Of a stretch of 64,000 bases of DNA, positions 52,074 through 58,158 are shown piece after piece. The stretch is taken from positions 62,001 to 126,000 of the forward strand of contig SVFQ01000006.1 of assembly GCA_015056765.1 (NCBI GenBank). The letters run 5' to 3'. A model generated the notes under the pieces. That model made no database searches, was not told the DNA's origin, and saw only the letters and a list, made by a program, of their open reading frames with translations. The DNA is from Lachnospiraceae bacterium (GTDB taxonomy: Bacteria > Bacillota > Clostridia > Lachnospirales > Lachnospiraceae). Every line of letters begins with the position of its first letter. Position 1 is the stretch's first letter. The position numbers were made by a program, and so were the translations under genes.

Positions 52074-53591
52074 ATGGCGAAAAACCTCATGATTCAGGGG
52101 ACCATGTCCAACGTAGGGAAAAGTGTGCTGGTGGCGGGCCTGTGCAGGGTACTGATGCAAGATGGCTATCAGGTGGCACCGTTTAAATCCCAAAACATGG
52201 CCCTGAATTCTTTTATAACAGAAGATGGATACGAAATCGGACGGGCGCAGGCAATGCAGGCGGAAGCAGCAGGGCTTAGCCCCTCTGTCTATATGAACCC
52301 CATTTTGTTGAAGCCTACCGGGGACCGGAAGTCACAGGTGGTATTGATGGGAAAAAGTATCGGGGATGTGGCGGCGAAAGAGTATTTTTCGCATAAAAAG
52401 AAGTATATGCCCCAGGTTTTGGAAGCCTATGAGCATCTTGCTCAAAATGCGGATGTGGTCTTAATCGAAGGGGCAGGGTCTCCTGCTGAGATTAATCTAA
52501 AAGAAAATGACATCGTTAATATGGGTCTGGCAAAAGCAGTGAATGCACCGGTCCTTTTGGTGGGAGATATTGATCCGGGTGGTGTCTTTGCGCAGCTTTT
52601 GGGCACGCAGATGCTTTTGGAACCGGAGGAAAAAGCGTTACTTAAGGGGCTCATCATCAATAAATTCCGAGGTGATGTGAGCATCTTAGAGCCGGGAATT
52701 CGAATGTTGGAGGAGCGGGCCGGTCTTCCGGTAGTGGGATGCGTGCCATATTTCCATTTGGATTTAGAGGAAGAGGACTCCCTGGCAGGACGTATAGATA
52801 CTGCTTCGGCAGTGAATCGACAAGGAAACGGCGGTGCAAACTTAGCCCGGAGGATGGAAGCCCAGGTGGATATCGTAGTGATTCGTCTTCCGCATATGTC
52901 GAACTTTACGGATTTTCAGGTACTGGACTTGCAGGAAAAGGTGAATTTGCGGTACGTAGATCAAGTAGAGGAATTAGGAACGCCCAATATGATCATTCTG
53001 CCCGGCACAAAGAACACTATCCAGGATATGAAGTGGCTGCGAGAGAGTGGTTTGGAAGCCAGTTTGTACCGACAGGTAGAAGCCGGAAGAGTGCTGTTTG
53101 GAATCTGCGGAGGATACCAGATGCTGGGAGAGACCATTGAGGATGCTGCAGGCGCAGAAGGCGGCGGAAAGATTCGTGGTATGGGTCTTCTTTCCATGCA
53201 TACGGTTTTTCATGTAGATAAGGTGCAACGACAAACAGATACCTGTATTGGGCAGCTTACAGGTGTTCTAAACTGTCTGTCTGGAAAGCATGTAAAGGGA
53301 TACGAAATTCACATGGGAAGAAGTCTGGAGAATCTCCCGATTGTGCAGGAACAGGCCAGCGTATATGGCACTTATCTGCATGGTATCTTTGATGAGGGAG
53401 ATTTGGCAGAAACCCTGGTGATGGCTTTACAAAAAGAGGCCGGCCTATCGGGGACTCGTGGAGGCACCGCAGAGCCAAAGAAAAAGGCTATAGACTACAG
53501 GGCTTACAAGGAAAGTCAGTATGATGCTTTGGCGGATATTTTACGTCAGCATCTAGACATGAATCAAATAAAGCACATCATAGGACTATAA
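52074..53591 (+). CDS. cobQ: Cobyric acid synthase (glutamine-hydrolysing)
   Basis: CobQ/CbiP, 505 residues, amidates four side chains of adenosylcobyrinic acid a,c-diamide using glutamine and ATP. The N-terminal synthetase domain has GTMSNVGKS (P-loop-like) and SQNMALNS, the C-terminal type 1 glutamine amidotransferase domain has FGICGGYQMLG with the nucleophilic Cys, GYEIHMG and YGTYLHGIFD with the His. This is the first gene of the late cobalamin cluster. GGAG precedes the ATG. No corrin-ring genes are in the window. Confidence 0.95.
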   Translation: MAKNLMIQGTMSNVGKSVLVAGLCRVLMQDGYQVAPFKSQNMALNSFITEDGYEIGRAQAMQAEAAGLSPSVYMNPILLKPTGDRKSQVVLMGKSIGDVAAKEYFSHKKKYMPQVLEAYEHLAQNADVVLIEGAGSPAEINLKENDIVNMGLAKAVNAPVLLVGDIDPGGVFAQLLGTQMLLEPEEKALLKGLIINKFRGDVSILEPGIRMLEERAGLPVVGCVPYFHLDLEEEDSLAGRIDTASAVNRQGNGGANLARRMEAQVDIVVIRLPHMSNFTDFQVLDLQEKVNLRYVDQVEELGTPNMIILPGTKNTIQDMKWLRESGLEASLYRQVEAGRVLFGICGGYQMLGETIEDAAGAEGGGKIRGMGLLSMHTVFHVDKVQRQTDTCIGQLTGVLNCLSGKHVKGYEIHMGRSLENLPIVQEQASVYGTYLHGIFDEGDLAETLVMALQKEAGLSGTRGGTAEPKKKAIDYRAYKESQYDALADILRQHLDMNQIKHIIGL

Positions 53592-54285: not shown

Positions 54286-55356
54286 ATGAACGAGTACTAC
54301 AGGCTTGCAAAAGAAAAATGGGATGCTGTGGCGAAGCCTTTGGATGGAATGGGTGAGTTTGAGCACATTTTATGCAAAATCGCGGCAATCCAGGAGACAA
54401 CGGATATACAGATTGAGAAAAGAGCCATCCTTACCTTATGTGGAGATCATGGGGTAGTGGCAGAGTCTGTAACCCAGACAGGCCAAAGCGTCACCGCATC
54501 CGTGGCGGCACATATGGCTAGAGGCACGGGAAATGTCTGCCGGATGGCAAAGACTGCCAATATACAGGTGATTCCGGTGGATATGGCTATCAAAGAGCCT
54601 CTGCCGGAGGATATCCAAAGCGTGGATACCATAAGGGAAGCATTACGCCCTGGAACCATACTGAATGCACATGTAGCCCCGGAAACCGGTGATTTTGTGA
54701 AGGAAGTAGCCATGCATCCAGTGAAGATGGCTATCGCTATGGCTACCGGCAGCAAGCTGGTAGAAGCCTGTCTGGAGGAAGGCTATACCATCCTAGGCAC
54801 CGGAGAAATGGGAATCGGTAATACCACCAGCAGTAGTGCGTTAGCAGCCTGCCTGTTGCATGTAAAACCGGAGGAGGTTACAGGCCGGGGCGCAGGACTT
54901 TCGGATGCAGGTTTACAACGAAAAATAGAGGTGATTCGGCAGGGCATCGCTTTTCATAAGTTGGAAGAGGAGCAGGATACAGAGAGGATTCTCTCTTGCC
55001 TGGGTGGATATGAAATCGCGGGCCTGGTAGGGGTCTTTTTAGGTGGAAAGAAGTATGGGGTACCTATCGTCATAGATGGACTGATTACAGCGGTGGCAGC
55101 CTTAATCGCAGAGCGACTGAAACCCGGCTGTAAGGATTACATGCTGGCTTCCCATCTGGGAAGAGAAAAGGCTATGACGATGATTTTAGAAGAACTGCAG
55201 TTAAAACCGGTGATTCACGGAGATTTAGCCTTAGGAGAAGGAACAGGAGCAGCTATGCTTTTCCCACTGTTAGATATGGCAAAGGCAGTGTATGATGGCT
55301 CTACCTTCGCAGACATACAAGTTGGACAATACAGGAGATTTGAGCATGAAGCGTAA
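54286..55356 (+). CDS. cobT: Nicotinate-nucleotide--dimethylbenzimidazole phosphoribosyltransferase
   Basis: CobT, 356 residues, makes alpha-ribazole phosphate (or an analogue with another base) for the lower ligand of cobalamin. Blocks include KPLDGMGEFE, CGDHGVVAESVTQ, LGTGEMGIGNTTSSSA, GRGAGLSD and the C-terminal LALGEGTGAAM with the catalytic Glu. Its last 11 bases overlap cobU, indicating coupled translation. Confidence 0.95.
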   Translation: MNEYYRLAKEKWDAVAKPLDGMGEFEHILCKIAAIQETTDIQIEKRAILTLCGDHGVVAESVTQTGQSVTASVAAHMARGTGNVCRMAKTANIQVIPVDMAIKEPLPEDIQSVDTIREALRPGTILNAHVAPETGDFVKEVAMHPVKMAIAMATGSKLVEACLEEGYTILGTGEMGIGNTTSSSALAACLLHVKPEEVTGRGAGLSDAGLQRKIEVIRQGIAFHKLEEEQDTERILSCLGGYEIAGLVGVFLGGKKYGVPIVIDGLITAVAALIAERLKPGCKDYMLASHLGREKAMTMILEELQLKPVIHGDLALGEGTGAAMLFPLLDMAKAVYDGSTFADIQVGQYRRFEHEA

Positions 55357-55894
55357 GATACTCTTTGTCTACGGTGGCAGCAATAGTGGCAAGTCGGAAT
55401 TTGCAGAAAACCTGGCATGTCAGGAAGAGGGCGTAAGGGTTTATCTGGCTACTATGGATAGTACGGCAGACTATAATCAGGCAACCATAGCAAGACATCG
55501 GGAAAACCGTAAGGACAAGGGGTTTATCACAGTGGAATGCCCGTATTTCTTGCAAGAAGCTGTACCGAAAATCAAGGATTTAGGTCAAAAGAAAGAAGGG
55601 ACGGGCTGTACAGTGCTACTGGAGTGCCTGTCTAATCTATTGGCAAATCAGATGTTCGCCACAGAAGTTCCCGATTGGCAGCATTTGCAAGATAATCTGG
55701 AATCTATCCTGGGAATTGCTGAGCACTGCCGGAAACTGATTGTCGTGGGAAATATCCTGAGTGAAGAGGGCAAAGCATATAGTCCTGAAACAGTGGAGTA
55801 TATCAGACTTTTAGAAAAGCACCAGAAAGAAATCGCGAAGCTTGCGGATGAAGTCTATGAGGTGGTAGCAGGTATCCCCTGCAGGGTGAAGTAA
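55346..55894 (+). CDS. cobU: Adenosylcobinamide kinase/guanylyltransferase
   Basis: A 182-residue CobU. Walker A GGSNSGKSEFAEN is intact and the ARHRENRK stretch holds the His that carries GMP in CobU. ECLSNLLANQMF matches the Walker B region. The C-terminal part ends in LADEVYEVVAGIPCRVK but lacks the usual V-P and R-F-R-D-x-x-G-x-x-N-Q elements. CobU phosphorylates adenosylcobinamide and activates it to the GDP form for CobS. ATG 55346 with AGGAG at 55333-55337 is chosen; an upstream start at 55292 would overlap cobT much more. Confidence 0.88.
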   Translation: MKRKILFVYGGSNSGKSEFAENLACQEEGVRVYLATMDSTADYNQATIARHRENRKDKGFITVECPYFLQEAVPKIKDLGQKKEGTGCTVLLECLSNLLANQMFATEVPDWQHLQDNLESILGIAEHCRKLIVVGNILSEEGKAYSPETVEYIRLLEKHQKEIAKLADEVYEVVAGIPCRVK

Positions 55895-56683
55895 ATGAGA
55901 AAAATTGGCATGAGCTTTTTAACAGCATTTTCATTATATTCCAGGATTCCGATGCCACAGATTATGTGGAAAAAAGAGGACCAGAAGTACTGCCTTTGTG
56001 CATTTCCTTTCATCGGACTTGTCATCTGGGGATTACAGTATGCTTTGAAGTATTTCATGGTAACTTGGCTTTGTTGGCAGGATATCTACGTAGCGATAGG
56101 TCTGGCACTGGTGCCAATTCTGGTTACCGGTGGCATTCATCTGGACGGATTTATGGATACCTGTGACGCCAAGTCCTCTTTTGGAGACAAGGAGAAAAAG
56201 CTGCAGATTTTATCAGATCCCCATATAGGGGCTTTTGCAGTAATACATCTACTGCTGTATGTGGCGGTTTACATGCTGGGCCTTTGGAACAGTATGTATT
56301 ATCTGGCTGACTTTAGAGGCATGGCCTTTTATGGAACTACCTTTGTGTATGCCAGAGTACTGAGCGGACTACTTTCTGCCACAGTAGAGAAAGCCAGAAA
56401 GGATGGCATGTTGGTGGCAGTTGCGCAGGAGGATGGCAAATCTACTGCGCAGAAGATCCTAGTGCTGGAAGGGCTTCTTTGCATCGCACTTTTGCTGATA
56501 CTGGATATGCGAATCGGAACCATGCTGATTTTAGTGACCTTGTTCTATCTACTTCTTTTTGCTAACAAGATAAAGAAAGAATTTGGTGGAGTGACCGGTG
56601 ATTTGGCCGGTTATCTTTTATGTATGACGGAATGTATCAGCATCTTGGTGATAGCTTTATGCTACGGCCTTGGATGGTGCTAG
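55895..56683 (+). CDS. cobS: Adenosylcobinamide-GDP ribazoletransferase (cobalamin synthase)
   Basis: CobS, 262 residues, an integral membrane enzyme joining adenosylcobinamide-GDP with alpha-ribazole (phosphate). The metal-binding DGFMDTCDA and the later GGVTGDLAGYL motifs are present, with about six hydrophobic segments. The ATG directly follows the cobU stop codon. Confidence 0.95.
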   Translation: MRKIGMSFLTAFSLYSRIPMPQIMWKKEDQKYCLCAFPFIGLVIWGLQYALKYFMVTWLCWQDIYVAIGLALVPILVTGGIHLDGFMDTCDAKSSFGDKEKKLQILSDPHIGAFAVIHLLLYVAVYMLGLWNSMYYLADFRGMAFYGTTFVYARVLSGLLSATVEKARKDGMLVAVAQEDGKSTAQKILVLEGLLCIALLLILDMRIGTMLILVTLFYLLLFANKIKKEFGGVTGDLAGYLLCMTECISILVIALCYGLGWC

Positions 56684-56695
56684 AGGAGAGAAGAT

Positions 56696-57175
56696 ATGAT
56701 ATTGGTGATAGGCGGCTTCGGCCAGGGAAAACTAGAAAGCTTTCAGGAGTATATGCAGTCTCAAAACAGGGGACTTTTGGAGCAGATAGTGGAAGAAGAC
56801 ATCCTGGATGGAGATATCTTTGTAGAAGAAGTAGCTGAGCCCTGGACGAAGGAAGAAGTGGCAGATGAGGTAGTGCTGGACCACCCGATTATATTCAATC
56901 ATTTCCACGATATGGTAAGGTGCTTGTACTTAGATGATACAGTGGATCATAAAGATTCCGTGGAGGAAATAGAGACCTATCTATGGAGTAGGCTTCAAAA
57001 GACACTGAAGAACTGCAAGTGGATCCTCTGTGATGAAGTGGGGAATGGAGTGATTCCTATTTCCGGAGCTGATCGCGATTACCGGATGGTGGTAGGCAGA
57101 TTACAAAGCAGACTTGCAAAGGAAGCAGAGGAAGTATACCGCATGACATGCGGTATGCCTACAAAAATTAAATGA
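56696..57175 (+). CDS. CobU-like paralogue with altered P-loop
   Basis: A 159-residue protein of the CobU fold. The start ILVIGGFGQGKLESF resembles Walker A, but the Ser/Thr after GK is Leu, and the GMP-carrying His region of CobU is absent. In contrast, the C-terminal half is more CobU-like than the real cobU here: CDEVGNGVIPISGADRDYRMVVGRLQSRLA and EEVYRMTCGMPTKIK. It could be a non-catalytic partner of CobU or a separate nucleotide-binding protein. GAGGAGAG precedes the ATG and the stop overlaps cbiB by four bases. Confidence 0.75.
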   Translation: MILVIGGFGQGKLESFQEYMQSQNRGLLEQIVEEDILDGDIFVEEVAEPWTKEEVADEVVLDHPIIFNHFHDMVRCLYLDDTVDHKDSVEEIETYLWSRLQKTLKNCKWILCDEVGNGVIPISGADRDYRMVVGRLQSRLAKEAEEVYRMTCGMPTKIK

Positions 57176-58158
57176 AGATTATATTAGATTATCATATCTT
57201 ATTTTCAATAGGAATAGGATTTTGTATAGATGCCATCATCGGTGATCCCAGATGGATGCCCCATCCTGTACGAGGAATGGGATGGTGTATCTCCAAGCTG
57301 GAAAAGGGATTGCGACGAGAATCGGATCCTTCCCAAAAGGCTTTTTGGAAAGGGGTGTTTCTGTGGTTTATTATGGTCCTTTTATGGACAGGGGGAACCG
57401 GACTTCTTTTATGGATTTCCTACCGGGTGCATCCTGTTTTGGGACTTCTTTTGGAGAGCATTTTGTGTGCTTTCTGCCTAGCTGCAAAGGACTTGAAAGT
57501 AGAAAGCGAGTACGTGGAGAAGGAGCTTTCAAGAGGCGGCATAGAAGCAGGCAGACAGGCAGTAGGGCGTATCGTAGGTAGAGATACAGTGGAACTGACT
57601 GAAGCAGAAGTGAGACTTGCTGCTGTGGAAACCGTGGCAGAGAATGCTTCTGATGGTGTGATTGCCCCTCTTTTTTATATGGCATTATTCGGTGGCATAG
57701 GAGGAATCCTCTATAAGACAGTCAATACTATGGATTCCATGCTGGGCTATCGAAATGAGAAATACGAGTATTTTGGCAAGATGGCAGCTAGAATGGATGA
57801 TGTGTTTAACTATATCCCATCTAGAATAACTGGTGTTATGATTGCTTTTGTCTCTCTTTTTCTTTCCTTTGCTGACGGGAATGCAGCCTTTCGCATTTGG
57901 AAGCGAGATAGGAGAAATCATAAAAGTCCTAATTCCGCTCAATCTGAAAGTGCTATGGCAGGTGCCTTAGGACTGCTTATGGGAGGCACCCACACCTACT
58001 TTGGTAAGTTAGTGGAAAAGCCTACTATAGGAGACAAAATAAGAGAAGTGGAACCCGGGGATATCCAAAGGGCAAATACCATCATGTATGCTTGCAGCAT
58101 CGTATGTCTTTTGTTATTTGGTTTGCTTCGGTTGTTTCTTCAGATTCTTTTGACCTAG
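57172..58158 (+). CDS. cbiB: Adenosylcobinamide-phosphate synthase
   Basis: CbiB (also called CobD in some species), 328 residues, attaches the aminopropanol (phosphate) arm to adenosylcobyric acid in the membrane. The pattern CIDAIIGDPRWMPHPVRGMG at the start, AVETVAENASDGVIAPLFY, NTMDSMLGYRN, MDDVFNYIPSRIT and the C-terminal SAMAGALGLLMGG is diagnostic. The ATG overlaps the previous stop (ATGA). Confidence 0.96.
   Translation: MKIILDYHILFSIGIGFCIDAIIGDPRWMPHPVRGMGWCISKLEKGLRRESDPSQKAFWKGVFLWFIMVLLWTGGTGLLLWISYRVHPVLGLLLESILCAFCLAAKDLKVESEYVEKELSRGGIEAGRQAVGRIVGRDTVELTEAEVRLAAVETVAENASDGVIAPLFYMALFGGIGGILYKTVNTMDSMLGYRNEKYEYFGKMAARMDDVFNYIPSRITGVMIAFVSLFLSFADGNAAFRIWKRDRRNHKSPNSAQSESAMAGALGLLMGGTHTYFGKLVEKPTIGDKIREVEPGDIQRANTIMYACSIVCLLLFGLLRLFLQILLT

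What the first reader, a model, noticed from the sequence alone, without database searches (positions are those of the whole stretch)
55346..57175. Two CobU-like proteins with complementary motif loss in one operon
The first (55346-55894) keeps Walker A and the His region but lacks the usual C-terminal Val-Pro and R-x-x-G-x-x-N-Q elements. The second (56696-57175) has lost the P-loop Ser/Thr and the His but keeps the C-terminal elements. They could act as a mixed oligomer, or the second could have a new role in B12 assembly.
Basis: partly seen in the sequence, partly recalled or inferred. Interest (0 to 1): 0.52.

Follow-up and report, generated by a model that had tools for sequence, protein, structure and literature searches.

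The report
Vitamin B12 enzyme split in two
Many gut and soil bacteria seem to have divided a vitamin B12-assembly enzyme into two proteins, one holding the chemical machinery and one holding a conserved piece the first has lost, although databases label both as the complete enzyme.

Summary
Protein A (55346-55894) keeps the P-loop, the guanylylated His and the Glu-Cys motif of CobU. Protein B (56696-57175) is a short CobU relative with a Ser/Thr-less P-loop and no His. B keeps the E-x-G-x-G-x-V-P...R...G segment that A has lost. One detail is wrong: neither window protein keeps the Asn-Gln pair.

Among 200 genomes of the same family, B occurs in 116 of 126 with A, in 0 of 4 with canonical CobU and in 0 of 70 without a CobU relative. 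In the wider class set B occurs in 40 of 44 low-scoring genomes and in 0 of 82 canonical ones. Twelve family genomes fuse A to B. Bacilli show the same split. NCBI names both proteins bifunctional CobU.

Best reading: B is a non-catalytic partner that supplies the lost segment to A in a mixed oligomer. Against it: ten A-type genomes lack B, and a co-evolution test was null. Neither the complex nor either activity has been shown.

The parts
55346..55894 (+). Protein A: CobU-like catalytic half (182 aa), overlapping the end of cobT by 11 bases
   Evidence: PF02283 92 bits over 2-167; closest solved relatives are CobU 9vio and 1c9k
55373..55396 (+). P-loop of A, GGSNSGKS
   Evidence: Read from the sequence; conserved G/K/S columns
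55496..55498 (+). His51 of A, aligned to Salmonella CobU His46, the published site of guanylylation
   Evidence: 100% conserved in 105 aligned A sequences; role of His46 from a title in the reference list of PMC4626045
56696..57175 (+). Protein B: short CobU-related protein (159 aa) without catalytic Ser/Thr or His
   Evidence: PF02283 37.7 bits over 105-168 only; family alignment A1
56711..56731 (+). Degenerate P-loop of B, GGFGQGK followed by Leu
   Evidence: GG..QGK conserved, next residue variable
57035..57097 (+). Segment of B carrying E114, G116, G118, P121, R127, R130, G134: the part of canonical CobU that A lacks
   Evidence: G118, P121 and R130 in 98 of 98 B, R127 in 96 of 98; partition table
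55895..56683 (+). cobS, between A and B
   Evidence: PF02654 138.6 bits
54286..55356 (+). cobT
   Evidence: PF02277
53644..54264 (+). histidine phosphatase, cobC-like
   Evidence: PF00300; TIGR03162 below its cut-off
52074..53591 (+). cobQ, cobyric acid synthase
   Evidence: NF001989 619 bits, over its cut-off
57172..58158 (+). cbiB, overlapping the end of B by 4 bases
   Evidence: PF03186
58195..59238 (+). cobD-like aminotransferase
   Evidence: PF00155; best NCBIfam match TIGR01140, below its cut-off

Best explanation
A and B together are a split CobU. A carries the nucleotide chemistry (P-loop, the His that takes GMP, the acidic Cys motif). B is a non-catalytic paralogue that keeps the CobU C-terminal unit with the conserved GxGxVP...R...G segment. 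I infer that A and B form a mixed oligomer in which B's segment reaches A's active site, or its corrinoid site, in trans. This would resemble ring NTPases in which a non-catalytic subunit completes the neighbour's site. Shown by sequence: the partition of conserved residues, the co-occurrence, the shared operon, the fusions and the same split in Clostridia and Bacilli. Inferred: physical contact, trans action, and what the segment binds.
For: Partition of canonical invariants. B in 116 of 126 A-type, 0 of 4 canonical and 0 of 70 other genomes of the family set. B in 40 of 44 low-scoring against 0 of 82 canonical genomes in the class set, where all 75 B-profile hits in canonical genomes lie inside the canonical gene. 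Twelve natural A-B fusions in the family set, two more in genome contigs and two in the class set. B within the fetched locus in 42 of 46 A loci of the genome-contig scan. Bacilli A keep canonical M39, W54, D80 and T83 but have lost P142, R148 and D152 in most rows, with B in the same operon. A tree of the N-terminal half alone groups clostridial A with 20 of 24 Bacilli A (support 0.98), which suggests one origin. AlphaFold2 of a natural fusion gives a CobU fold for the A half, Z 23.2, rmsd 1.9 over 169 residues to 9vis, and in B the same C-terminal order of strand, long helix, strand, strand.
Against: Ten family-set A-type genomes lack B, and A in those lineages also lacks the segment, so the segment is dispensable somewhere. 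Distance-matrix co-evolution of A and B beyond cobS and cobT is null: partial correlation 0.10, jackknife error 0.10. The domain arrangement of the predicted fusion is only moderately confident (pTM 0.75 and 0.62) and no coordinates were available. B is also fused to CobC, CobD, CbiG and an NAD-binding domain, so fusion does not point to A alone.
Confidence: 0.55

Rival explanations
1. A is a complete enzyme on its own. B is a regulatory or structural accessory (for example binding AdoCbi-GDP or passing it to CobS) that does not enter A's active site.
For: A keeps nearly every nucleotide-site residue tested; ten family-set genomes with A and no B keep the late cob genes and nine of ten have CbiC; B usually lies next to cobS.
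Against: It does not explain why A lost exactly the segment that B kept, in two bacterial classes, nor the repeated A-B fusions.
Confidence: 0.25
2. The two reactions were divided: A does guanylyl transfer, and A plus B is needed for the kinase step of cobinamide salvage.
For: De novo synthesis through CbiB needs no kinase (recalled), and 9 of the 10 family-set genomes without B carry CbiC; the window's own genome, with A and B, lacks CbiC and CbiD (84% complete).
Against: B is no more frequent without CbiC (10 of 11) than with it (106 of 115), Fisher p = 1; one B-less genome, G054, also lacks CbiC; Cytobacillus spongiae has A, B and an amidohydrolase that could bypass the kinase.
Confidence: 0.1
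3. B is a decaying duplicate with no function.
For: Loss of catalytic Ser/Thr and His.
Against: B invariants (G118, P121 and R130 in 98 of 98) are tightly kept across Clostridia, and P121 and R127 are invariant in an alignment that spans Bacilli and other classes; open frames and operon position are kept.
Confidence: 0.03

Closest known systems
[quoted passage not shown] PDB 1cbu, 1c9k, 7tm8, 8yes, 9vis)
   Same: Fold of the A half, P-loop, His, Glu-Cys motif, operon context
   Different: Canonical CobU carries all motifs in one chain; here the GxGxVP...R segment is on a second, non-catalytic protein
Ring NTPases with paired catalytic and non-catalytic RecA-fold subunits, such as F1-ATPase alpha/beta or RAD51C-XRCC3
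   Same: Proposed working principle; RecA-fold proteins of this kind appear below CobU in the fold searches
   Different: Analogy only: different family and chemistry, and no trans contact shown here
CobY, the archaeal guanylyltransferase
   Same: Same pathway step
   Different: Non-homologous and lacks kinase activity (PMC7242693 and PMC4626045, passages read); A and B are CobU relatives

Membership tests
CobU (for A) | PF02283 over its gathering score | tested here: met
   92 bits against 27
CobU (for A) | P-loop and guanylylated His | tested here: met
   GGSNSGKS and His51; conserved in the A family
CobU (for A) | C-terminal GxGxVP...R segment of canonical CobU | tested here: not met
   Absent in the window's A and in most of 107 A sequences
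CobU (for A) | NCBIfam PRK05800.1 equivalog cut-off | tested here: not met
   79.4 bits against 161
CobU (for A) | Kinase and guanylyltransferase activity | not testable with these tools
   Needs an enzyme assay
CobU (for B) | PF02283 over its gathering score | tested here: met
   37.7 bits against 27, but only profile positions 105-168
CobU (for B) | Functional P-loop Ser/Thr | tested here: not met
   GG..QGK followed by a variable residue
CobU (for B) | Guanylylated His | tested here: not met
   No counterpart in the B family alignment; B aligns with A only over the C-terminal 69 columns
CobU (for B) | CobU fold of B on its own | tested here: inconclusive
   B half predicted with block pLDDT 80-98 over residues 191-320 of the fusion, but the fold searches were filled by the A half
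Hetero-oligomeric CobU (A+B) | Physical complex with trans-acting segment | not testable with these tools
   No multimer prediction and no coordinates; fusions are indirect evidence

The most novel reading that the evidence does not exclude
Across much of Bacillota, AdoCbi-GDP synthesis is done by a two-subunit CobU in which a pseudoenzyme paralogue with a Ser/Thr-less P-loop supplies an essential active-site segment in trans. This would be a hetero-oligomeric P-loop kinase and nucleotidyltransferase that arose once, and that some lineages later outgrew by losing both the partner and the C-terminal part of A that goes with it.
Probability: 0.45. Interest if true: 0.72.

Novelty: new variant of a known kind. 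Interest (0 to 1): 0.6.

Why it matters
CobU is the accepted bacterial enzyme for activating the corrin ring. If the split form is real, many gut Clostridia and Bacilli predicted to make or salvage B12 use a two-protein enzyme, and the present annotation, which gives both genes the full bifunctional name, is wrong for B and incomplete for A. The natural partition also says which parts of CobU are needed for nucleotide chemistry and which may act across the subunit boundary, a question that solved CobU structures can answer directly.

Tried and rejected
Considered and set aside: that the window pair is a one-off decayed duplicate (rejected); that B marks salvage rather than de novo synthesis (no association); that B-less genomes use the CbiZ route (CbiZ in 0 of 12 B-less genomes and 3 of 30 tested). 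Among the cob genes labelled in B-less loci I saw no extra gene that I could name as a substitute; unlabelled genes there were not searched.

Led nowhere: the distance-matrix co-evolution test (null). A joint alignment of fusions, A and B put B on the A half, so two separate alignments were used for the two predictions. Fold searches with the fusion models were filled by the A half, so B's fold was not tested alone. The Foldseek searches also listed KaiC, a tandem RecA protein, at large rmsd, which I did not interpret. No Rfam family, and so no cobalamin riboswitch, was found anywhere in the window. Literature searches for a split or doubled CobU returned nothing on it in the held library. That library lacks most subscription papers, so absence from print is not claimed. 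One search was badly worded and matched Coburg. Papers: passages were read in PMC7242693, PMC6593275, PMC3814363, PMC8123684, PMC4626045 and PMC1079889; all others were seen in search listings only.

Recalled, from no call: the published CobU-GMP structure places guanosine between strand 2 and helix 2 in a homotrimer; CbiB makes AdoCbi-P directly.

Limits: the line between A-type and canonical is read off a gap in the PF02283 score lists (family set: A at most 134 bits, canonical at least 173; class set: low-scoring at most 127, canonical at least 142). Genomes are not independent, so the Fisher value overstates significance. Four low-scoring class-set genomes lack B: G287 and G309 are A-type; G323 and G326 I did not classify. 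One B in the class set (G381) sits near a contig end and gave only a B match. Some genomes are in both sets. The Bacilli loci were chosen because they carry B, so they test the residues of A, not co-occurrence.

Full report
What is there. The window lies in an 84%-complete assembly (G000), which has no other CobU relative over the family cut-off. Two CobU-related genes sit in one operon: cobQ, a histidine phosphatase, cobT, A, cobS, B, cbiB, cobD. A has a P-loop, the His aligned with Salmonella His46 and a Glu-Cys motif. B is shorter, has GGFGQGK followed by Leu, no such His, and matches PF02283 only in its C-terminal third. Profile-to-profile comparison aligns B with A over the C-terminal 69 columns only, at 98.8% probability.

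Family-level partition. I aligned 32 canonical CobU proteins (31 from genomes, one the enterobacterial reference), 107 A, 12 A from lineages without B, and 98 B to one canonical profile. One A row is a truncated copy of the window's own A. A keeps the nucleotide site: K12 99%, S13 100%, His46 100%, R50 100%, E58 99%, N88 99%. A has lost G137 (7% kept), G139 (19%), P142 (9%), R148 (14%) and D152 (3%). B keeps G137 95%, G139 100%, P142 100%, R148 98% and G155 99%, with Glu for D152 in 91 of 98, and lacks N158 (2%).

Co-occurrence. In 200 genomes of the same family, 140 gave a PF02283 match at E 0.01; 10 of these were weak and treated as chance, leaving 130. Four have one canonical CobU and 126 have A. 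A profile of B finds B in 116 of the 126, in none of the four canonical genomes apart from the canonical gene itself, and in none of the other 70. In 293 genomes of the class, 126 have a strong PF02283 match: 82 canonical and 44 low-scoring. B is present in 40 of the 44; all 75 B-profile hits in canonical genomes fall inside the canonical gene.

Gene arrangement. Of 46 A loci from the genome-contig scan, 35 are A-cobS-B, one is A-cobS-B with B fused to CobC, four have A directly before B, two are A-B fusions, and four have no B in the fetched stretch. Twelve further A-B fusions were read in the family set, and two in class-set genomes. B is also fused to CobC (L097, L175, L176), to an aminotransferase of the CobD type (L018), to CbiG (L129) and to an NAD-binding domain (L050).

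Lineages without B. Ten family-set genomes have A and no B; with two class-set genomes they form three groups inside the A clade, next to the window's own A, with modest support. Their A proteins lack the segment too and have lost further C-terminal residues. Their late cob genes are present and nine of the ten have CbiC. This is the main evidence against a strict need for B. It reads most simply as later loss of B together with the matching part of A.

Range. B is found beyond the class and in 42 of 299 Bacilli genomes at 78 bits or more over the whole model (counted from the listing). In 24 Bacilli loci plus two named Lachnospiraceae records, most A keep the canonical N-terminal half, including M39 and W54 that clostridial A changed, but have lost P142, R148 and D152. 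A tree from the N-terminal half alone joins clostridial A with 20 of the 24 Bacilli A at support 0.98. So the loss of this segment is the shared trait of A proteins that live with B. In three named records ([Eubacterium] eligens ATCC 27750, Roseburia sp. 831b, Cytobacillus spongiae) both genes carry the full bifunctional CobU name.

Structure. AlphaFold2 was run on a natural fusion (L076) with two alignments: mean pLDDT 81 and 82, pTM 0.75 and 0.62. The A half is a CobU fold, Z 23.2, rmsd 1.9, 169 aligned residues to 9vis. B shows the same C-terminal order of strand, long helix and two strands as A. Its fold was not tested alone, and no coordinates were available for the interface.

How it most likely works. 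Established for CobU: a P-loop enzyme that makes an enzyme-GMP intermediate on His46 (reference titles in PMC4626045). A keeps that chemistry. The segment lost from A and kept in B is nearly invariant in the canonical set. A segment that leaves one protein exactly where a second protein carrying it exists, in one operon and sometimes one chain, is best explained by the second protein lending it in trans within a mixed oligomer. The contact and the ligand of the segment remain inference. A co-evolution test gave no support.

Verdict. A new, widespread split variant of a known enzyme, misnamed in databases; mixed-oligomer mechanism probable, not shown.

Noticed in passing
G000 (window genome): No CbiC or CbiD found: the organism may salvage corrinoids rather than make them, but the assembly is 84% complete.
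   Followed up: partly
L058, L059, L060, L068, L069: In operons without B, cobQ is fused behind an ABC-transporter-like ATPase, read from the sequence.
   Followed up: no
L018, L050, L097, L129, L175, L176: B is fused to a CobD-type aminotransferase, an NAD-binding domain, CobC or CbiG.
   Followed up: partly
L065 834-3245; L211 1145-3586: Long CobT-containing proteins with an N-terminal part that looks like cobyrinate a,c-diamide synthase.
   Followed up: no
L049: The A gene of one genome carries short tandem repeats and reads as two open frames.
   Followed up: no
window 1-42500: Upstream of the cob operon lies a long run of glycosyltransferase, dTDP-sugar and transporter-like genes, apparently a surface polysaccharide cluster (names are from reading, not searched).
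   Followed up: no
L189 and L190 (G703): One genome outside the class has two A-B pairs.
   Followed up: no
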